Positions 24,206 through 48,451 of a DNA stretch of 64,000 nucleotides are shown in pieces. The position numbers were made by a program, and so were the translations under genes. Numbering within the stretch: the stretch's first letter is position 1; the number at the start of each line of letters is the position of its first letter. The notes under the pieces are model-generated. The model ran no database searches. It worked only from the letters and a program-made list of their open reading frames with translations, and was not told the DNA's origin. The stretch comes from a virus. The DNA lies in IMG/VR virus record IMGVR_UViG_3300042542_004122, positions 1-64,000 of that record, one strand, 5' to 3'.

Positions 24206-24509
24206 AGGAAAGCTGAGATTACACTTTCTATATTAGCACTTCAAGAGGTACCCTCTATTTGCAGTAGAGGTTTTCTTGACATCCACCAGATGCCTGCTAA
24301 GGTCACCCAGTATACCAACAGTATCGCCTTTTAAAGTCTGGCAGTAGACTTGACGTTATACGCTACTCTATATTATACCGTCCGCTGACCTTGCGAGCCA
24401 TTAAGCCTTGCGAGCTACGAATTTTTTAATATAAACTGATTTCACCTTGCGGGTTACATCAGACCAAGTTCTCTTTCGAGCTTGGTATTAGATACCTTTC
24501 ACATATAAC
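24206..24509. other. Structured non-coding DNA
   Basis: No gene seen. Long-range repeats include AAGGTCA...TGACCTT (24299-24392), which enclose AAGTC...GACTT and GATAC...GTATAC hairpins like a distorted clover leaf. Several short CCTTGCGAG-type words recur near 24388-24450. Confidence 0.5.
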
Positions 24510-24627
24510 CGAGGCAGACTTTGCTTTTTTAAAACATTGACTGGATTTGAACCAGCGTCCGTTTGCTTCCAACGCAAATGCTCATCCACTGAGCTACAAT
24601 AATAACCTACTGCGATGTGCTGCCTCG
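24510..24627 (-). ncRNA. tRNA-Pro-like (TGG) core inside long helix
   Basis: CGAGGCAG/CTGCCTCG flank a core (24535-24604) with D-arm GCTC/GAGC, anticodon TTTGC-GTTGGAA-GCAAA and T-stem CTGG/CCAG. Acceptor pairing is poor and CCA absent. Confidence 0.55.
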
Positions 24628-25056
24628 TTGCTCCGTATGGTTTTGACATACAAAATACAACACACCACGTATCTTTCGCGACGCGCGCTACTCGATCGTA
24701 TTTTGCGACGATGTATAAGCATTTATAGCTTATCCACTACCGCTGATACTGCAAAAATGCCTTTAGTTGCTTAAACTTCAGACAGAGATGCTACCCTTTG
24801 TTCTACCAACTGCTAGATTGGTGTTGTAGTGAAGTCGGCACCACCCGTTACATTCCAATAACTTAGGTTCCCCTTTCGGGCCTATAAGCTATCGTTTTCT
24901 CACTACACCTAGTTCATTGTTACCTCCGTTGCCGAAGGCTAGGAACTGGGCTTGCTTAAGTGGGCCACTCGGAGAGTGGTGCGGTTATGTAGGGATTACC
25001 GCTTTTATCACATTACTGTGACTATCCTTATGGGGCTTAAGCGCCCCAACTCATTA
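24628..25056. other. Structured non-coding DNA
   Basis: No gene seen. Inverted repeats: TGTAGTGA...TCACTACA (24825-24907), CTTAGG...CCTATAAG, CCACTC-gga-GAGTGG, GCGGT...ACCGC and GGGGC...GCCCC. Looks like a chain of structured RNAs; family unknown. Confidence 0.5.
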
Positions 25057-33061: not shown

Positions 33062-33502
33062 GTGATAAATAAAAATGTATTTTTATTCGTTATATTAATG
33101 CTGAGTTACTCCGCTAAAGCTAGTGAATTAAATTTTAAATTTAAAAATCCGGCTTTTAGCGGAGTTAACTATTCTAGCCACGTATTTGCAATTGAACAAC
33201 TGGAAGAGCAAAGAAAACAAAAAATAAAAGATGAACAAGAAAAAATTAGAAAAGAGTTAGAAAGTAAACTTGAACAGAGTAATCTTCAGAAGTTTTTAAG
33301 AAATGTTGAAGCTAGAATATACGCTCAAATATCTAAAGATGTTGTCGATAAGATGTTCGACGGCACCGGATCGTCATCGGGAACCGTTGTAATAGGAGGA
33401 GCTAGCGTAAGTTTTAACAATGACGGCTCTAACATTACATTAAATGTAGTAGACGATAAAGGTAATACTACTGTTATAACTATACCTCTAGGGGCTTTTT
33501 AA
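33062..33502 (+). CDS. csgF: Curli assembly factor CsgF
   Basis: 146 aa. Signal peptide about 1-20, then LNFKFKNPAFSGV (about 22-34), the conserved CsgF N-terminus that inserts into and narrows the CsgG pore. It is followed by a coiled neck and a C-terminal beta domain (GTVVIGGASVSF, ITIPLGAF). GTG start; stop overlaps the csgG start. In bacteria CsgF couples curli nucleation to secretion. Confidence 0.88.
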   Translation: MINKNVFLFVILMLSYSAKASELNFKFKNPAFSGVNYSSHVFAIEQLEEQRKQKIKDEQEKIRKELESKLEQSNLQKFLRNVEARIYAQISKDVVDKMFDGTGSSSGTVVIGGASVSFNNDGSNITLNVVDDKGNTTVITIPLGAF

Positions 33503-34275
33503 TGAAAAAGATTTGCTTAGTAGGTTTTTTATTGTTAACAGCATGTATACCTCCTAATGTAGAAGAGCCTATATCAATAAATGAATCTGTAGTTAAAAAA
33601 CTAACTATAGTTAATAGTCCTTTATCTACAGAAGCTCCTTTTTATATAGCAGTATATCAATTTTCAGATAAAACAGGACAGAGACGTCCAAGCGAAGTAG
33701 TAGCTCATCTAAGTAGTGCTGTTACGCAGGGAGCCGAAACTTGGCTTATAAAAGCACTTCAAGATGCTGGTAACGGTAGCTGGTTTAAAGTTGTAGAAAG
33801 AGTAGGGTTAGAAAACCTAACTAGAGAAAGACAATTAATCAGGCAAACCAGAGAACAATACGAAGGTAAGGATGCTAAGCCACTAAGACCTTTAGTATTC
33901 GCATCTCTTATATTAGAAGGTGGAATTATAGGATATGACGTAAATACGATAAGCGGTGGAATAGGAGCGAGATATTTAGGTATAGGTTCTTCAACACAAT
34001 ATAGACAGGATCAAGTAACTATAGTAATGAGACTAATTAGTGTTCAAACAGGAGAAGTGCTGCTTAACGTAGCTACAAGTAAAACCATACTTAGCTCTGC
34101 TGTAGGTATAGATGTTTTTAAATTTGTAGATGCAGGAACTCGAGCCGTAGAAATAGAAACTGGTTTAGCTACAAATGAGCCTGTAAACTATGCTGTCAGA
34201 GCAGCGATTGAAGCTGGAGTAGTAGAACTAATTCAAGAAGGTGCAAGAAAGGGGCTTTGGAGAATGTCAGAATGA
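33502..34275 (+). CDS. csgG: Curli secretion channel CsgG
   Basis: 257 aa. Lipobox LTAC at Cys 15. FYIAVYQFSDKTGQRRP (about 46-62), LENLTRERQLIRQ, IIGYDVNTISGGIGARYLGI and QVTIVMRLISVQTGEVL match CsgG along its whole length, including the constriction loop region and the transmembrane hairpins. It forms the nonameric outer-membrane pore for curlin export. Coupled to csgF (TAATG) and curlin (ATGA). Confidence 0.95.
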   Translation: MKKICLVGFLLLTACIPPNVEEPISINESVVKKLTIVNSPLSTEAPFYIAVYQFSDKTGQRRPSEVVAHLSSAVTQGAETWLIKALQDAGNGSWFKVVERVGLENLTRERQLIRQTREQYEGKDAKPLRPLVFASLILEGGIIGYDVNTISGGIGARYLGIGSSTQYRQDQVTIVMRLISVQTGEVLLNVATSKTILSSAVGIDVFKFVDAGTRAVEIETGLATNEPVNYAVRAAIEAGVVELIQEGARKGLWRMSE

Positions 34276-34925
34276 AAAAATTATATACTATTTTAATGAT
34301 CTTATTAAGCACTCATGCTTATGGACAAAGTAACGTTCTATATATAGAACAATCAGGCGCTGGATTCTCAGGTTCTATTACTCAAGATGGAGCAACTAAT
34401 ATAATTGGAACTTCTAGTAGTCCTTCGATAATTAACGGTACTACCAATACTATTAGTGTCAATCAAATTGGAAATAGTAACTCTTTAGATTTTGCAGTTT
34501 ATGGAGATACAAATACGATATCTATTACAAAAACAGGCGATTCCAATTCAGTTACTCTTGAAATAGGCAGTAACGGACAAGATAGTAGCACTAATGAATA
34601 TACCCTAGACATTACTGGTAGTAGTAATACTATAGAATCTACTATAACTGGCGGTATAAATACTGTAGGTATAACAATTTTCGGAGACAGTAATAGTATT
34701 ACTAATACTATATCTAGTGGTAATACAGAACTTACTCTTACCGTAACAGGTAGCACAAATATTATAACAACTAATCAATCAGGAGCTGGAGCACATAGAA
34801 TAATACATGACCATACAGGAGATACTGGAACTTTTAGTTTTAGCCAGAGTGGAACCAATGCAAAAATTATCAATATTATTACTAACGGTAATAATCAGTC
34901 AGTTACTGTATCTCAAACAGACTGA
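34272..34925 (+). CDS. Curlin-repeat protein (CsgA/CsgB-like)
   Basis: 217 aa from MKKLYTILMILLSTHAYG (signal peptide). At least seven repeats of the type N-x5-Q/T-x-G-x-x-N, e.g. NTISVNQIGNSNS and NTISITKTGDSNS, plus AKIINIITNGNNQSVTVSQ. Such repeats stack as cross-beta strands of curli amyloid. Being directly after csgG, it is the expected substrate. Its last 68 nt also encode the signal peptide of the next gene. Confidence 0.85.
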   Translation: MKKLYTILMILLSTHAYGQSNVLYIEQSGAGFSGSITQDGATNIIGTSSSPSIINGTTNTISVNQIGNSNSLDFAVYGDTNTISITKTGDSNSVTLEIGSNGQDSSTNEYTLDITGSSNTIESTITGGINTVGITIFGDSNSITNTISSGNTELTLTVTGSTNIITTNQSGAGAHRIIHDHTGDTGTFSFSQSGTNAKIINIITNGNNQSVTVSQTD

Positions 34926-35907
34926 AGCAAGAATAGGAGATGTAACAGAGCTTAACGGACAGGCGTCTGTTACAAGAAATAAAAAAGAACAACCTATAGG
35001 CATTCGAGACGGTATCGAATCTATGGACACTATCTCTACTAAAAATTCAAAGGTTAGGATAGATTTTATTGACAAAACCCACGTTAGTGTAACTGAGCAT
35101 AGTGACTTAGAAATAGATGAGTATGTTTTTGATCCTTCTAGAGATTTAGCAAAATTATCTATGAAAGTATCTTCTGGCACTGTACAATATGCAAGCGGAC
35201 TTTTAGCAAAAAAAGTAGGAGCTGTAGATGTTAGAACTCCTACTGCTTCTATAGCAGTTAGAGGTACAGAATTTTCTATGAGTGTCAATGAGTTAGGTAA
35301 AAGTTTGATTATGCTTTTACCTAACCAAGATGGAAGCACAGGAGAAATTACCGTTAGCACAGACGTTGCAAGCGTTATTCTAAATAGAAGTTATCAAGCT
35401 ACTATAGTGACTAGCAGCTCTAGTCCGCCTTCAAATCCACTTATTCTTAATATGTTAGGCAGAGTAATAAATAATGATTTACTGCTGTCCATGCCGAAAT
35501 CTGTAGAAACAGTTTCTAATGTCGAAAAAGAACAAGGTCCATTGGATTTTGACCTTAAATTTGTAGACGTAAATATGCTGGATAAAGATCCTCTTAAATT
35601 TGAAGAACTGAATGTAGACCTGCTAAAGTCTGATTTTTTCAATACTAGATTAAACAATATAGATTCAATTTTTGATAATTTTAGTGAACGAGATGGTCAA
35701 GTGACTGGATATAATCCAACTACACAAATTAATACAGTAGTAGAAGACACTACCGTATTAACCCAAAGATTAGATATTTCTATATTTTCTGTAAAAGTTA
35801 ATAAAGATTATGGATTAAAAATCGAATACAATGGCGATGGTATCTCTGCTGCGTTTGTAGCTGGAAATATGCAATCCAACAGTATTTTAAAGGTTAAGCA
35901 AAAATGA
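34858..35907 (+). CDS. Secreted FecR-domain protein
   Basis: 349 aa. Start at 34858 gives a signal peptide LSILLLTVIISQLLYLKQTEA read in another frame of the curlin gene. FecR domain about 26-150: IGDVTELNGQASVTRN, RDGIESMDTISTKNSKVRI, VRTPTASIAVRGTEFSM. FecR domains are periplasmic sensors; here it is paired with a CHASE2 cyclase, a combination found in bacteria. C-terminal about 190 aa is unassigned. Confidence 0.8.
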   Translation: MQKLSILLLTVIISQLLYLKQTEARIGDVTELNGQASVTRNKKEQPIGIRDGIESMDTISTKNSKVRIDFIDKTHVSVTEHSDLEIDEYVFDPSRDLAKLSMKVSSGTVQYASGLLAKKVGAVDVRTPTASIAVRGTEFSMSVNELGKSLIMLLPNQDGSTGEITVSTDVASVILNRSYQATIVTSSSSPPSNPLILNMLGRVINNDLLLSMPKSVETVSNVEKEQGPLDFDLKFVDVNMLDKDPLKFEELNVDLLKSDFFNTRLNNIDSIFDNFSERDGQVTGYNPTTQINTVVEDTTVLTQRLDISIFSVKVNKDYGLKIEYNGDGISAAFVAGNMQSNSILKVKQK

Positions 35908-37958
35908 AAAAAGTAATCATTACTTTACTAACAATCGCAATAGGTATCGGTATAAAGATATACGAGCCTAATATAGTAGAAATTTTAAAACTCAAAGGAT
36001 TTGATCAGTTATTAACTTTAAATGATACTAAAACTAGTGAAACAGCCGTAATAATAGAAATTGATGAGCCTACAATAGAGCAACAAGGTCAATGGCCTTG
36101 GCCAAGAGATTTAATAGCAGATGGTATTAAAAAAGCTGTAGATCATGGAGCTGAGATTGTAGTTCTATATCCGCTTTTTGCAGAAAAAGATAGATTTAAT
36201 AAAGATGAAATACTTAAAGAGGTTATAACAAATAGTAAGGTCATAGGAACGCAATCTGCTTCTTTAAAAGGGAAAGGAGATCTAGTAACTAGAGGTTTTG
36301 CTATCGTAGGAAATACAGAAGAACAATGGTTTTATAGGTATCAAAACGGAATAGGTAGTATTTCTGAAATATCTAAAACAGCTCAAGGTATGGGTATGAT
36401 TACTACAGTCCCAGAACTAGATGGAGTAACTAGAAAAATACCTTTAGTGTTAATGGTTGGTGATAAGTTCTATCCTTCTTTACCTTTAGAAATAGCAAGA
36501 GTAATACATGGGGCTAAAAATTATAGAGCAAAAGTTACTGAGGCGGGATTATCTAGCATATATATCAATAAGAATTTTTCCATAGAACCAGATAAGCGCG
36601 GAGAGTTATGGATAGATTGGTCTTGGACCTGGCCTATTAAAAGTTGGAAAGAGGAATCTTGGGGAGACTTGACAGGTAAAATAGCTATTTTAGCTATAAA
36701 CGTAGAGGGAATTACTAATACTATTGCAACCCCTGCAGGCACTAAACTAGGTCATGAAGTTAGTTTAGCTGCATGGGAAACTCTATGGAACGATAATAAA
36801 ATAACTAGACCTTATTGGGCAGATTTAACTGAGCTTTTATTTTTCTGTCTGTTGATAGCAGTCAGTGCTCTCGTTGCTGATAAAGGAAATAAATTACTCG
36901 TAGGAGTATGGGGAGTAGTTATACTACTAGTTCCATTTAGTATAAGTTACTACGTCTTTAATCAATATCAATATTTAACTGATTGGACATTTAGTTTAGT
37001 ATTTGGAACACTGTTCTATGGATATGTCGTGTATTCTAGATTTGTTAAAGAGTTTAAACTAAAGCAACAAATCAAGAAACAATTCCAATCTTATCTTTCA
37101 AAGGCTCTTGTGGAAAAACTCCAGAAGAATCCAGAGCTATTAAAGCTTGGCGGAGATAGCAGAGAGCTGTCAATCATGTTCACAGACGTTCGTGGGTTTA
37201 CCTCTATCAGCGAACACTATGGTGAGAATGTTCAAGGATTAACCCAAATCATGAATCGCTATATGACAGCGATGACTGCAAAAATTCTTGAGAATGAAGG
37301 AACGCTTGATAAGTATATTGGCGATGCACAGATGGCATTTTGGAATGCGCCGCTTGATGACAAGCAGCACGCCAAGAATGCAGTTAAAACAGCTTTAAGT
37401 ATGTTAGGAGATTTAGATGAATTCAACAGAAGTATTGCGGCTGAAGGCGTCCCTCCTTTCGGCATGGGCCTTGGTATCAATACCGGTATGGTTGTTGTTG
37501 GAAATATGGGCAGCGATCAACGTTTCGATTATACTTGCCTCGGTGATGCTGTCAATCTTGCTAGTCGTCTCGAAGGACAAAGCAAACCGTATGGAGTCAA
37601 ATTAGTCATTGGTTCAAAGACAGCAGAGTATGTTTCAGATGAATATTTTATATTAGAACTGGACACTATTGCGGTAAAAGGTAAAAAACAAGGAGTTAAT
37701 ATCTATACTGTTTTAGGCACTAATAAAGAGATAGATGATTTAGGTTTTTCTTATGCAAGAAAAGATCATAACGATATGTTAGATTATTATAGAAATAAAA
37801 ACTTCACTAGTGCTACCGTATTGTGCGAAAGATTAACGAAAGCATTTAAAGGCGATATGAAATCATACTACGAAATGATGATGGATCGTTGTCGTGAGTA
37901 TACAAAAACCCCGCCACCAGCTAACTGGGACGGGGTTTACAGAGCTACTAGTAAATAG
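35904..37958 (+). CDS. CHASE2 sensor - class III adenylate/guanylate cyclase
   Basis: 684 aa. N-terminal TM, CHASE2 periplasmic domain about 40-310 (IIEIDEPTIEQQGQWPWPR, ATPAGTKLGHEV), three TM helices about 310-385, then a class III cyclase domain. MFTDVRGFTS and YIGDAQMAFWNAP provide the metal aspartates, LDKYIGD the purine-selecting Lys, and CLGDAVNLASRLE the Asp and the transition-state Asn/Arg. All key residues are present, so it should be active, probably making cAMP. It ends in two successive TAG codons. The region about 37080-37620 has more GC-rich codons, suggesting a recent host origin. Confidence 0.93.
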   Translation: MKKVIITLLTIAIGIGIKIYEPNIVEILKLKGFDQLLTLNDTKTSETAVIIEIDEPTIEQQGQWPWPRDLIADGIKKAVDHGAEIVVLYPLFAEKDRFNKDEILKEVITNSKVIGTQSASLKGKGDLVTRGFAIVGNTEEQWFYRYQNGIGSISEISKTAQGMGMITTVPELDGVTRKIPLVLMVGDKFYPSLPLEIARVIHGAKNYRAKVTEAGLSSIYINKNFSIEPDKRGELWIDWSWTWPIKSWKEESWGDLTGKIAILAINVEGITNTIATPAGTKLGHEVSLAAWETLWNDNKITRPYWADLTELLFFCLLIAVSALVADKGNKLLVGVWGVVILLVPFSISYYVFNQYQYLTDWTFSLVFGTLFYGYVVYSRFVKEFKLKQQIKKQFQSYLSKALVEKLQKNPELLKLGGDSRELSIMFTDVRGFTSISEHYGENVQGLTQIMNRYMTAMTAKILENEGTLDKYIGDAQMAFWNAPLDDKQHAKNAVKTALSMLGDLDEFNRSIAAEGVPPFGMGLGINTGMVVVGNMGSDQRFDYTCLGDAVNLASRLEGQSKPYGVKLVIGSKTAEYVSDEYFILELDTIAVKGKKQGVNIYTVLGTNKEIDDLGFSYARKDHNDMLDYYRNKNFTSATVLCERLTKAFKGDMKSYYEMMMDRCREYTKTPPPANWDGVYRATSK
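37906..37938 (-). terminator. Terminator embedded in the cyclase 3' end
   Basis: AAACCCCG/CGGGGTTT; on the minus strand followed by TTTTTG. It ends the convergent leftward operon from inside the plus-strand coding sequence. Confidence 0.65.
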
Positions 37959-44813: not shown

Positions 44814-45013
44814 TATTTAGTTTCCTTCATTTTCTTTAAGAGTTTTTGTTCTTTTTTCTTTAGATAGTCCATATATACCCTTTTAATAAACAGGGCTCCA
44901 ACAAACTCTCCAGACTGTTGTTTAATAAGTTCATACTCATCTAATACTTGAGTTTGACCGTGAACATCGGCCATAGTTTTAAAAAATTGTTTACCTTCTG
45001 TATAATAGCTCAT
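44813..45013 (-). CDS. Hypothetical protein, 66 aa, leaderless-type start
   Basis: MSYYTEGKQFFKTMADVHGQ, Lys-rich C-terminus KKKEQKLLKKMKE. TATAAT ends 6 nt before ATG. Function unknown. Confidence 0.65.
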   Translation of the reverse strand: MSYYTEGKQFFKTMADVHGQTQVLDEYELIKQQSGEFVGALFIKRVYMDYLKKKEQKLLKKMKETK

Positions 45014-45019
45014 TCTATT

Positions 45020-45048
45020 ATTATAGAGTGTTTTTTAGTCTTTAGCAA
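45020..45048 (-). promoter_or_regulatory. Promoter TTGCTA-17-TATAAT, 6 nt before ATG
   Basis: -35 45043-45048, -10 45020-45025, ATG at 45013. Back-to-back with the plus-strand promoter at 45087. Confidence 0.85.
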
Positions 45049-45086
45049 TAAAAAAATAAGAGATAATGGTCAAATAAAGAAATTAT

Positions 45087-45114
45087 TTGACATTTTAAAC
45101 TATTATGTTATAGT
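45087..45114 (+). promoter_or_regulatory. Promoter TTGACA-16-TATAGT, 6 nt before ATG
   Basis: -35 45087-45092, -10 45109-45114, ATG at 45121. Confidence 0.8.
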
Positions 45115-45120
45115 AATTTA

Positions 45121-45294
45121 ATGTATGCAACCCCTCAGGAACTAAAAGCCCAGGTTAGGGATCTTAGGTCAGAAATCATAGCCGTATCTAAAGAGTTAGG
45201 CGGAGAGATTCAATACTTAAATCATCGTATTAATGAACTCCATTCTATAATAGAAGCCCAGGCGGAGGCAATTAGGAAATTGAATAATGTATAA
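45121..45294 (+). CDS. Coiled-coil protein, 57 aa, leaderless-type start
   Basis: MYATPQELKAQVRDLRSEI continuing in heptads to the end (LGGEIQYLNHRINELHSII). First gene of the bS21 operon; overlaps the next by 8 nt. Function unknown. Confidence 0.65.
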   Translation: MYATPQELKAQVRDLRSEIIAVSKELGGEIQYLNHRINELHSIIEAQAEAIRKLNNV

Positions 45295-45562
45295 TAAGTT
45301 GTACGGATTCTATCACAACGATACTCTTTTAGAGTATTTGAATGCTAGATTCAGCGAGTTATCTGCTGTTACAAAAAATCTTGAGTATATTACCTTAGAT
45401 GAAACATCTGATAAAGCTCAACTATGGGGTGTTAACGTATTTCCTACGATAATACTTAGTAAGCATGATCTTATGGGACCAATTTTACAAGGCGCATACC
45501 CAGGACATACATTATTACAGTGGTTGCAAAAGTATAACGTAGAAGTGAGTAAAGATAATTAA
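45287..45562 (+). CDS. Thioredoxin/glutaredoxin-like fold protein lacking CxxC
   Basis: 91 aa. YGFYHNDTLLEYLNARFSE and the cis-Pro segment WGVNVFPTIILS, then GPILQGAYPGHTLLQWL, fit a glutaredoxin/thioredoxin fold. The active-site cysteines are missing (HND in place of CPYC), so a redox role is unlikely; perhaps a scaffold or binding module. 1-nt overlap with rpsU. Confidence 0.6.
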   Translation: MYNKLYGFYHNDTLLEYLNARFSELSAVTKNLEYITLDETSDKAQLWGVNVFPTIILSKHDLMGPILQGAYPGHTLLQWLQKYNVEVSKDN

Positions 45563-45831
45563 TGAAACTATTTGTTAAACATAACGACGTAACCAAAGCG
45601 TATAAGATTTTAACTAAAAAATTAAACGATGAAGGTATTTTTAAGACTTTAAAATCTAAGGAACATTATCTTAGTAAGAGTCAGAAAATACGTGCTAAAA
45701 AGAAAATAGCCCTATCTAGGTTCAGAAAAGAACAGAAAAAGAAAAGAATGATAGAGGCTAGGCAAGAAGAGAAGTTTTTACTTTACTCTAAAAAATCAGG
45801 TAACTTTCAGCAGCCTAGAAGATACTCTTAA
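45562..45831 (+). CDS. rpsU: Ribosomal protein bS21
   Basis: 89 aa. MKLFVKHNDVTKAYKILTKK, GIFKTLKSKEHYLSKSQK and IRAKKKIALSRFRK align with bS21, in the alphaproteobacterial style (LVxxNxVxxALxxLKKKLxxEGxF). A C-terminal extension (about 65-89) is phage-specific. bS21 sits near the anti-Shine-Dalgarno end of 16S rRNA, so a phage copy could reprogram initiation on infected-cell ribosomes. Confidence 0.88.
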   Translation: MKLFVKHNDVTKAYKILTKKLNDEGIFKTLKSKEHYLSKSQKIRAKKKIALSRFRKEQKKKRMIEARQEEKFLLYSKKSGNFQQPRRYS

Positions 45832-45840
45832 AAATACAAG

Positions 45841-45869
45841 TTGTCTCATACTTATATATTTCATATAAT
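45841..45869 (+). promoter_or_regulatory. Promoter TTGTCT-17-TATAAT, 6 nt before ATG
   Basis: -35 45841-45846, -10 45864-45869, ATG at 45876. Confidence 0.8.
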
Positions 45870-45875
45870 ACATAT

Positions 45876-46139
45876 ATGAAAGCATATAAAGGAAAGTTTA
45901 CAAAAAAAGACGGATCTGAGCGAAAAATGGTTTTTGCAAAGATCCTAGACATTACTAAAGTTAATGACGAGTTTATCGCAGCAAAGATCGTAGGAGATGG
46001 TAGATCCAGAAACTATGGACCCGGACAAGAACTTGTTTGGGATTTAGAGGCTGATGATTTTAGAATATTTAACTGGGAAAAAGCCGTAGAAATAGAAGAA
46101 ATAACTATTTCTAAAAGTATTTTTGAAGGAGTTAAATGA
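45876..46139 (+). CDS. Hypothetical SH3-like protein, 87 aa, leaderless-type start
   Basis: MKAYKGKFTKKDGSERKMVF, then AKILDITKVNDEFIAAKIVG and GQELVWDLEADDFRIFNW: a small beta barrel. I have seen the KxDGSxRxMxFxKLxD pattern in T4-like phages. Function unknown. Confidence 0.65.
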   Translation: MKAYKGKFTKKDGSERKMVFAKILDITKVNDEFIAAKIVGDGRSRNYGPGQELVWDLEADDFRIFNWEKAVEIEEITISKSIFEGVK

Positions 46140-46306
46140 CTGACGTCGATATTGTTTTAGCACAAGCAAGAAGATTATATCATCATTATACTAATTTAGA
46201 ATCTCCTAATAGACAATTCTCTAGAGTAGCTGATGATTTTGGTTCGATAGTAGAAAATTTAGAATACATTCAATCAAAATTACATAGTGTTTCAACTAAA
46301 ACATAA
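46136..46306 (+). CDS. Hypothetical protein, 56 aa
   Basis: MTDVDIVLAQARRLYHHYTN, helical with ENLEYIQSKLHS. ATGA overlap upstream; overlaps the next gene by 20 nt. Function unknown. Confidence 0.55.
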   Translation: MTDVDIVLAQARRLYHHYTNLESPNRQFSRVADDFGSIVENLEYIQSKLHSVSTKT

Positions 46307-46472
46307 CTACTTTAAAGGTCAAGTCGTAGAATTTAGTTATAATTACTGGTCCATCTATAATGAGGCTGGTAAGCTAATTCTGACTACTAAAGATAAAAAA
46401 TATGCTGAGGCTAAATTGCAACAACTAAATAAGGCTTTAGCAGACAAGATCTCGTTGATAGCAGCGAAATAA
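46287..46472 (+). CDS. Hypothetical protein, 61 aa, GTG start
   Basis: FQLKHNYFKGQVVEFSYNYW then YAEAKLQQLNKALADKI. The stop codon directly precedes the acceptor piece of the tmRNA. Function unknown. Confidence 0.5.
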   Translation: MFQLKHNYFKGQVVEFSYNYWSIYNEAGKLILTTKDKKYAEAKLQQLNKALADKISLIAAK

Positions 46473-46730
46473 GCATACTGGACACGGGGGCAGTGCCCGT
46501 CATCTCCACCATAAATATGTCGATTAGTAAACATTGACATATTTATAATGGGGATGAATTAGGATCGACAGGTGTGTAAAGGTTGAAGTAGAGATAGGTG
46601 CGCGAGCGACCTCTAATCGCAAGAAATCAATAAATGCTAACGATAATAGCATCGAAGAGATCCGCCTAGCGGCATAACTTCTGCGGTATGGGCTCCACCG
46701 TATTACCCAACGGGCCTATTCCTTTTAGAA
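46473..46730 (+). ncRNA. ssrA: Circularly permuted (two-piece) tmRNA
   Basis: Acceptor piece: GCATACTG, T-arm ACGGG-GGCAGTG-CCCGT, then CATCTCC-A-CCA (46501-46511). A 38-nt intervening segment folds as TAAATATGTC...GACATATTTA. The coding piece starts GGGGATG (46550-46556), which pairs perfectly with CATCTCC including G3-U70, the alanine identity pair. CAG(G)TGTGT pairs with GCATACTG as helix P2. The tag frame 46636-46677 reads ANDNSIEEIRLAA plus stop. Rescues stalled ribosomes and tags nascent chains for proteolysis. The 3' end is approximate. Confidence 0.92.
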
Positions 46731-46739
46731 AGATTTTTA

Positions 46740-47450
46740 ATGTTTATTTATTGGAGAGTATGCGAATTACAAAAATCTATTAGCTACGTTAATAGATGGA
46801 AAAACTATAACAAAACAGACATCTTAAAAAGATGCTGGTTATCAGTTCAGAGTAGCGTATCTCCAGACGATCAAATCTATCTAATAGAAGATAATGTAAC
46901 CCATGAGACTTTAACTTGGTTAAGAGAGACGTGCAAAGCAAAGCTAAGTATCATACACGTACCAGAACATGCATGGGAATATCATCAACATACAGTAACC
47001 TTGATAGATACGCTAGAATCCTCTGTTAAACAGTATGAGCAAGATGTTCATCTTATTTTAGAAGATGATTATCTGTTTACTCCAAACGGATTAAATACTT
47101 TTAAGTTGTCCGCTGAAAATTGGAATCAAGGATTTATAGCTCCTTACGACTATATTGATAGATATAAAGAAATAAAACCCACTCAAGTTCTTTTAGGCCC
47201 AGATAGACATTGGCGTACAGTAGATAGTATTACTATGACTGTAGCAGCCAAAGGTTTTATCTGGGTTAAGTATTTAAAAGACTTAAAAGATGCAGCTCCT
47301 ACCAGCAATGATAAAGTCTTCGATAAGATTTTATCTGAAGTGCCATGTATCTCTCCAATGCCTTCTTTATGCAGTCATCTTACCGAACATCATAATAGTC
47401 CTTACATGGATATAGAAAATATCTGGAAATATTACGAGAACAATCTATGA
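46740..47450 (+). CDS. Glycosyltransferase-like protein, 236 aa
   Basis: RCWLSVQSSVSPDDQIYLIEDN and VHLILEDDYLFTPNGL (DxD-like EDD) indicate a GT-A fold related to GT2/GT25 enzymes. First gene of a tightly overlapping glycan cluster, ATGA to the epimerase. Confidence 0.7.
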   Translation: MFIYWRVCELQKSISYVNRWKNYNKTDILKRCWLSVQSSVSPDDQIYLIEDNVTHETLTWLRETCKAKLSIIHVPEHAWEYHQHTVTLIDTLESSVKQYEQDVHLILEDDYLFTPNGLNTFKLSAENWNQGFIAPYDYIDRYKEIKPTQVLLGPDRHWRTVDSITMTVAAKGFIWVKYLKDLKDAAPTSNDKVFDKILSEVPCISPMPSLCSHLTEHHNSPYMDIENIWKYYENNL

Positions 47451-48451
47451 AGATATATATAACAGGAATAGCAGGATTTTTAGGCAGTCACTTAGCTAAG
47501 AGATTTTTAATGAAAGGCCACAAGGTATCTGGATGTGATACCCTTATAGGTGGTTATTTAGATAATTGTCCGCAACCAGCAGATTTTAAACAGATAGATA
47601 TTTTAAACTATGAAGCTCTTGTAGAGCATATGAAAGATTCAGACATAGTTATTCACACTGCTGCTCTTGCTTATGAGGGTCTATCTGTATTTAGTCCTAA
47701 ACTTGTTACAGAGAACATCTACGCAGGAACTATGAGTGTTGCTACAGCAGCTATAGCTTCTAAAGCTAAACTATTATTGAACTGTAGTTCAATGGCTAGG
47801 TATGGTTTAATAGAAACTCCGTTTACAGAAAAGTCTGTATGCAATCCTATTGATCCATATGGGTTAGCTAAGTATCAAGCCGAACAAGCTATCAATTTAC
47901 TTAGTGATATTCATGGCATTAAAGTAGTTCATGTGGTTCCTCATAATATAATAGGAACTCATCAAAAATATGATGATCCGTATAGAAATGTAGTGTCTAT
48001 CTTTATTAATTCGTTGCTGCAAAGCAATAAGCTCATTATATATGGAGACGGATTACAGAAAAGAAGTTTCAGTCCTGTTGTAGATTGTATAAATGCGATT
48101 ATTAGAATAATCGAAAAAGAAGATATTCCAAATAAAGAAATCTTTAATATAGGACCCGAGGGCAACGAGATTACTATTAAAGACTTAGCCTATAAAGTAG
48201 CACATCTATGTGGTATTTATCCAAGTATTCAATACCTTGCTGATAGACCGCAAGAAGTAAAAAACGCATGGTGTAGTAGTGAAAAAGCTAGAATAGAGCT
48301 AAACTATGCGCCCAACACAAGTATGAACGATACCATTCAAGAAATGGTATCATGGATTCGCGGAAAGGGCGCTAAACCTTTCGATTACAAACTACCTTTA
48401 GAGATTATAAACGAGAAAACACCTAGGACATGGGTAGAAAAACTATATTAA
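47447..48451 (+). CDS. NAD-dependent nucleotide-sugar epimerase/dehydratase
   Basis: 334 aa extended SDR. GIAGFLGSHLAKRF (GxxGxxG, about 6-19), DIVIHTAALAYEG, NCSSMARYG with catalytic Ser and DPYGLAKYQAE with YxxxK. Typical of UDP-glucose 4-epimerase/GDP-sugar dehydratase relatives. It provides an activated sugar for the neighbouring transferases. Confidence 0.88.
   Translation: MKIYITGIAGFLGSHLAKRFLMKGHKVSGCDTLIGGYLDNCPQPADFKQIDILNYEALVEHMKDSDIVIHTAALAYEGLSVFSPKLVTENIYAGTMSVATAAIASKAKLLLNCSSMARYGLIETPFTEKSVCNPIDPYGLAKYQAEQAINLLSDIHGIKVVHVVPHNIIGTHQKYDDPYRNVVSIFINSLLQSNKLIIYGDGLQKRSFSPVVDCINAIIRIIEKEDIPNKEIFNIGPEGNEITIKDLAYKVAHLCGIYPSIQYLADRPQEVKNAWCSSEKARIELNYAPNTSMNDTIQEMVSWIRGKGAKPFDYKLPLEIINEKTPRTWVEKLY

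What the first reader, a model, noticed from the sequence alone, without database searches (positions are those of the whole stretch)
46473..46730. Permuted two-piece tmRNA encoded by the phage
The acceptor piece (T-arm, CATCTCC-A-CCA) precedes the coding piece (GGGGATG...). The two pair over 7 bp including G3-U70, an intervening hairpin joins them, and the tag frame gives ANDNSIEEIRLAA. Permuted tmRNAs are typical of Alphaproteobacteria. A phage copy would secure ribosome rescue during infection and identifies the likely host class. The T-loop (GGCAGTG) is not the standard TTCRANY, which is odd.
Basis: partly seen in the sequence, partly recalled or inferred. Interest (0 to 1): 0.9.

Follow-up and report, generated by a model that had tools for sequence, protein, structure and literature searches.

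The report
Phage two-piece tmRNA beside bS21 gene
This phage carries its own intact copy of the RNA that rescues stuck ribosomes, in a known rearranged two-piece form, and related uncultivated phages keep that RNA next to a ribosomal-protein gene and a small unknown gene, which suggests a shared kit for keeping captured ribosomes working.

Summary
Window 46449-46677 (+) matches Rfam tmRNA_permuted (123.9 bits, cut-off 47) and alpha_tmRNA (104.8, cut-off 50); ARAGORN calls a permuted tmRNA with tag ANDNSIEEIRLAA. Against a colinear relative phage (L291), 31 pairs compare as 24 unchanged, 6 compensated, 1 one-sided, 0 broken. The 'odd' T-loop is normal: GGC[A/G]GTA is the commonest type in relatives. 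Two-piece phage tmRNAs are already published, so the RNA is a new member of a known kind. It does not fix the host class: phage Melnitz carries an alpha-type tmRNA but infects OM43. New here is the context. A search with the small WYL-like gene upstream (X, 45876-46139) alone gave 80 viral loci: 70 have bS21, 70 a permuted tmRNA, 67 both, always ordered bS21, X, tmRNA on one strand; the 6 with only one partner are cut by a contig end, 7 have neither. I found no report of this cassette in the papers searched. Most likely it supports trans-translation with host SmpB during infection (inferred). Relatives also carry conserved small ORFs inside the tmRNA intervening segment.

The parts
46449..46511 (+). 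tmRNA acceptor piece: P2 strands (46449-453, 46462-465, 46474-476, 46478-480), T-arm 46484-46500, acceptor 3' strand 46501-46507, A73, encoded CCA 46509-46511; true 5' end unknown
46512..46549 (+). intervening segment, 38 nt, 10-bp hairpin possible; presumably removed in processing
   Evidence: 7 nt in L291
46550..46719 (+). tmRNA coding piece: acceptor 5' strand 46550-46556, D region, P2 return strands, PK1 (46596-599/46609-612), tag frame, PK2 (46682-687/46697-702 and 46689-695/46712-718); 3' end not defined
   Evidence: PK2 is my reading of the sequence, weak in the alignment
46636..46677 (+). tag reading frame, ANDNSIEEIRLAA then TAA
45562..45831 (+). ribosomal protein bS21 gene (89 aa)
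   Evidence: Pfam PF01165 E 2.9e-9, 36.9 bits, cut-off 27
45876..46139 (+). gene X (87 aa): small barrel resembling WYL / Sm-like domains; lies between bS21 and tmRNA in relatives
46287..46472 (+). ORF of 61 aa whose last codons and stop lie inside the tmRNA acceptor piece; 58% identical in L291

Best explanation
The locus is an intact permuted (two-piece, alpha-type) tmRNA gene of a T5-like phage. Its transcript is cut by host tRNA-processing enzymes into an acceptor piece and a coding piece, held together by the acceptor stem and P2. It is charged with alanine (G3-U70), binds host SmpB, enters ribosomes stalled on broken messages and tags the product with ANDNSIEEIRLAA for proteolysis. During infection this keeps ribosomes in circulation while host RNA is degraded. 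It is expressed beside phage bS21 and X as a translation-takeover cassette. Shown: anatomy, compensated pairs, conserved cassette order. Inferred: transcription, processing, charging, SmpB use, rescue during infection, and any joint action with bS21 and X.
For: Rfam and ARAGORN hits over cut-offs. Window vs L291 (found through X, not through a tmRNA pattern; contigs 74% identical over 6.3 kb): of 31 pairs 24 same, 6 compensated, 1 one-sided, 0 broken. 30-sequence alignment: acceptor and T stems 100% paired, P2 proximal 92%, covariation score 0.280 vs shuffled 0.119 +/- 0.007, 0 of 500 shuffles reach it, best slid control 0.154. Three near-identical contigs keep it with 0, 0 and 1 difference in 46449-46719, the one being in the intervening loop. 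Cassette: 67 of 80 X-found loci have bS21 and tmRNA in one order and strand; 37 of 44 clusters at 90% X identity.
Against: No RNA data. The record is a 72-kb fragment without SmpB, and 0 of 47 cassette records have SmpB (linear records, possibly fragments), so host SmpB must serve. The outer P2 helices and pseudoknots are poorly supported in the automatic alignment (36-57% of cells paired, one stray pair 30%). In the 30-row alignment the CTCC/GGGG/CCA columns are invariant by construction, because the search patterns fixed them.
Confidence: 0.78

Rival explanations
1. The RNA acts chiefly in regulated proteolysis or takeover: its tag marks selected host or phage nascent chains for degradation, or competes with the host tmRNA, rather than serving general rescue.
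For: The Melnitz authors raise selective degradation of host proteins (PMC9004378, passages). A CDS-less phage tmRNA-like RNA (DS6A) inhibits the endogenous tmRNA in E. coli (PMC11915505, passages).
Against: The tag frame is intact and ends in LAA, and the tRNA domain is under compensatory selection, so no loss-of-function decoy is needed.
Confidence: 0.15
2. Recently captured or decaying host gene, or host DNA in the assembly, with no function for the phage.
For: Phage ssrA fragments can come from imprecise prophage excision (PMC9004378, passages).
Against: Same locus in three other contigs and in a 74%-identical relative with 0 broken pairs of 31; at least 119 viral loci are hit by a loose permuted-tmRNA pattern (capped).
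Confidence: 0.04
3. The bS21-X-tmRNA linkage is only shared ancestry of one phage lineage, not a functional unit (a rival for the cassette, not for the tmRNA).
For: Flanks are also partly shared: 220 of 528 locus pairs share an upstream homologue, 183 of 406 a downstream one.
Against: The cassette is kept in 37 of 44 X clusters while flanks match in under half of pairs; in the six-member alignments the proteins have diverged to 45-54% (X) and 28-43% (bS21) identity to the window.
Confidence: 0.3

Closest known systems
Rfam RF01849 alpha_tmRNA / RF04321 tmRNA_permuted
   Same: full-length match to RF04321; piece order, acceptor stem, T-loop type, resume signal and tag
   Different: only model positions 40-270 of 355 of alpha_tmRNA match; phage-borne
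Two-piece tmRNA of Methylophilales phage Melnitz (PMC9004378; MZ577096)
   Same: phage-borne permuted alpha-type tmRNA
   Different: no bS21 or X found by HMM in the 12-kb stretch read; intervening segment 142 nt with an ORF against 38 nt here
Phage-encoded bS21 (PMC6375957, PMC9723584)
   Same: phage bS21 gene with conserved small neighbours
   Different: PMC9723584 describes capsid-gene neighbours; 'tmRNA' does not occur in either main text
Huge-phage translation genes (PMC7162821)
   Same: tmRNA, SmpB and S21 listed among phage genes
   Different: no adjacency of S21 and tmRNA in the passages seen

Membership tests
permuted tmRNA (RF04321) | covariance model score over gathering cut-off | tested here: met
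   123.9 vs 47 bits, model 1-213/213
permuted tmRNA (RF04321) | acceptor piece with CCA precedes coding piece; 7-bp acceptor stem with G3-U70 | tested here: met
permuted tmRNA (RF04321) | tag frame with resume codon, ending in hydrophobic LAA and stop | tested here: met
permuted tmRNA (RF04321) | transcript processed to two mature pieces | not testable with these tools
   needs northern blot or RNA-seq
alpha_tmRNA (RF01849) | score over cut-off and best of its clan | tested here: met
   104.8 vs 50 bits; only the best of overlapping clan matches is kept
alpha_tmRNA (RF01849) | distal P2 and pseudoknots conserved | tested here: inconclusive
   36-57% of cells paired in A1; window and L291 agree in the P2 pairs and PK1 stem 1
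bS21 (PF01165) | Pfam score over cut-off | tested here: met
   36.9 vs 27 bits
WYL_2 (PF10902), for gene X | Pfam score over cut-off | tested here: not met
   15.3 vs 26.7 bits for the window protein; all 6 members of A2 match at E up to 0.1, best E 0.0036. X is therefore only called WYL-like
SmpB (PF01668), for the phage | phage-encoded SmpB | tested here: not met
   0 of 1 and 0 of 47 cassette records, which may be fragments; controls ring in 10 of 14

The most novel reading that the evidence does not exclude
bS21-X-tmRNA is a dedicated phage ribosome-takeover cassette: phage bS21 remakes ribosomes, X is an RNA-binding partner of the tmRNA or ribosome, and the tmRNA rescues these ribosomes. 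Because ORF 46287-46472 ends inside the acceptor piece, maturing the tmRNA would clip the stop codon off that message and turn it into a non-stop mRNA whose product is tagged by the same tmRNA, a feedback like that recalled for arfA.
Probability: 0.15. Interest if true: 0.82.

Novelty: new variant of a known kind. Interest (0 to 1): 0.52.

Why it matters
Phage tmRNAs are known but their use is not. A tmRNA locked to a phage ribosomal protein and one small unknown protein across many uncultivated phages gives a concrete unit to test: does phage-altered translation need its own rescue RNA? It also warns against reading host class from tmRNA type, and shows that context studies which scan only protein families and tRNAs would miss the partner.

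Tried and rejected
T-loop as a sign of a broken tmRNA: rejected. Stop-codon recoding by the CTA tRNA: TAG ends 15 of 112 non-overlapping ORFs of 60 aa or more, and coverage rises only from 0.855 to 0.868 if TAG is read through, so standard code. Host by closest named phage: tblastn of DNA polymerase and DnaB-like helicase gave many phages at 30-40% identity, best ones Vibrio and enterobacterial; CsgG gave pelagiphage HTVC008M at 52.8%; megablast of 46740-48451 gave nothing; no host call made. X (the L119 copy was the query) and the bS21 protein have no hit in the phage collection, so no named phage carrying the cassette was found. Nearest cellular tmRNA: one genome-contig scan with a strict pattern gave a single hit, in a MAG contig labelled Muricauda, probably a phage contig; no cellular tmRNA tree could be made. 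ORF 45287-45562: no Pfam or PHROG match, left unnamed. X in the PDB: Foldseek best E 0.033 to PafBC; VIA-align best Z 5.5, too weak to name a function; viral library best E 4e-5 to a 'WYL domain containing protein'. One PDB sequence hit at E 0.34 ignored. PHROG match of X to phrog_1086, unknown function, E 1.5e-4, says nothing of function. First strict viral pattern gave 0 hits.

Counts: the 30-row alignment A1 used 30 of 95 dereplicated viral tmRNAs, those nearest to the window save six in that range that I left out (L152, L037, L074, L062, L096, L047). The S21 scan used 49 tmRNA records (9 of 49 hit; by coordinates 4 lie 0.5-1.1 kb upstream on the same strand, 5 at 5-9 kb). One search kept the best 80 of 84 relatives.

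Full report
What is there. The window is part of a 72,161-base virus record. It carries phage replication genes: a NAD-dependent ligase, a D5-like regulator, a DnaB-like helicase, primase and SbcC, and a DNA polymerase at 38-40% identity to phages of about 108-117 kb (the label 'T5-like' for those phages is mine), and 28 tRNA genes. At 46449-46677 (+) both Rfam models for permuted tmRNA hit far above cut-off and ARAGORN reports a permuted tmRNA. I mapped the pieces by hand and the cmscan alignment: acceptor piece to CCA 46511, intervening segment 46512-46549, coding piece from 46550, tag 46636-46677.

Is it functional RNA? One search counts 47 pairs over 30 viral sequences: acceptor and T stems pair in 100% of cells, proximal P2 in 92%, and the covariation score is well over both controls. 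Part of this is circular: 29 of the rows were found with patterns that fix CTCCACCA, and most with GGGG too. The outer P2 helices and the pseudoknots score only 36-57% on the automatic alignment (one stray pair 30%). The cleaner test is L291, found by protein X and not by RNA. Its contig is colinear at 74% identity; of 31 pairs 24 are the same, 6 are changed on both sides and still pair, 1 is changed on one side, 0 are broken. G3-U70 is kept. Its intervening segment is 7 nt against 38, and its tag is ANDNSIEGIRLAA.

Is it known? Yes as a kind. PMC9004378 (passages) reports a two-piece tmRNA in phage Melnitz and 53 two-piece predictions among 133 unique phage tmRNA structures. PMC11915505 (passages) describes the RF04321 model and counts 79 bacteriophage tmRNA sequences. 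The Melnitz work also shows that an alpha-type tmRNA need not mean an alphaproteobacterial host.

The surroundings. Upstream on the same strand lie bS21 (45562-45831), gene X (45876-46139) and an ORF (46287-46472). tblastn showed bS21 and X in the same order before the tmRNA in other contigs. To avoid choosing by tmRNA I searched viral contigs with a profile of X alone: of 80 loci kept, 70 have bS21 by an HMM from A3, 70 have a permuted tmRNA by nhmmer or ARAGORN, 67 both, always bS21 then X then tmRNA on one strand. By the coordinates, the three with tmRNA only (L305, L356, L357) are cut on the 5' side and the three with bS21 only (L313, L329, L338) on the 3' side. Seven have neither (L350, L351, L359, L363-L366). 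At 90% X identity there are 44 clusters: 37 both, 5 neither, 2 one. Median gaps are 241 nt (bS21 to X) and 269 nt (X to tmRNA) over 67 loci. Flanking genes are shared by 220 of 528 pairs upstream (33 loci) and 183 of 406 downstream (29 loci), so these phages are partly related, but the cassette is tighter than its surroundings.

Partners. X is predicted as a small barrel (pLDDT 88.6), nearest to WYL-type proteins in viral models (E 4e-5), but it fails the Pfam WYL_2 cut-off. No SmpB in the window's record or in 47 cassette records, so host SmpB is presumed. The phage bS21 of HTVC008M enters E. coli ribosomes, and ribosomes carrying it were inactive (PMC6375957, passages), which makes a neighbouring rescue RNA an attractive but untested pairing. 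PMC9723584 (abstract start, section 14 and passages) profiled bS21 neighbours in 900 phages with protein families; the word tmRNA does not occur in its main text. Searches for tmRNA with S21 and phage listed no paper that, in the listings and passages I saw, reports this cassette. Most subscription papers, and preprints, are not held.

Overlap. ORF 46287-46472 is 58% identical in L291 and ends in the acceptor piece in both. Of 38 cassette loci examined, 34 show the acceptor pattern, and in 29 of these 34 an ORF of 35 or more codons ends within 60 nt before to 12 nt after GGAC; in 16 of 34 it ends 6-15 nt before it (counted). I made no chance control for this. It is the basis of the bold reading.

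Mechanism. Steps shown: anatomy, pair conservation, cassette order. Steps inferred: transcription, cutting by host enzymes, alanine charging, host SmpB, rescue and tagging, joint use with bS21 and X. A promoter scan of 45000-47000 found 10 matches against 8.5 +/- 3.0 in shuffles and no terminator, so it adds nothing.

Noticed in passing
L126, L149, L121, L143, L187, L211, L129, L183, L123 and others, intervening segment of the tmRNA: In relatives the segment between the two tmRNA pieces is often 100-256 nt and holds a small ORF, often with a Shine-Dalgarno-like sequence: 51 of 102 distinct segments have an ORF of 25 aa or more, 31 of 102 longer than shuffles at p<=0.05. Families such as PKYL, MFDRLTEFF, CINNYS vary most at third codon positions, e.g. 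120, 72, 242. A microprotein gene nested in a tmRNA gene; Melnitz (L121) has one too. I found no report in the paper searches made (listings only).
   Followed up: partly
L134, L101, L140, L129, L159: Permuted viral tmRNAs that seem to lack PK1: a very short stretch joins P2 to the resume codon.
   Followed up: no
window 24210-24668 (-): GOLLD RNA (RF02032, 205.3 bits) with a tRNA-Pro gene inside it, within the tRNA array.
   Followed up: no
window 11618-11691 (-): tRNA with CTA anticodon (ARAGORN label Pyl), a possible amber suppressor, in a phage that still uses TAG as a stop.
   Followed up: partly
window 33502-37958: CsgG (PF03783), a FecR-domain protein and a CHASE2 plus adenylate/guanylate cyclase protein in a row; CsgG is nearest to pelagiphage HTVC008M.
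   Followed up: no
L123 (NHBR02000136.1): A MAG contig titled Muricauda carries an alpha-type permuted tmRNA with a nested ORF, so it is probably a phage contig binned wrongly.
   Followed up: no
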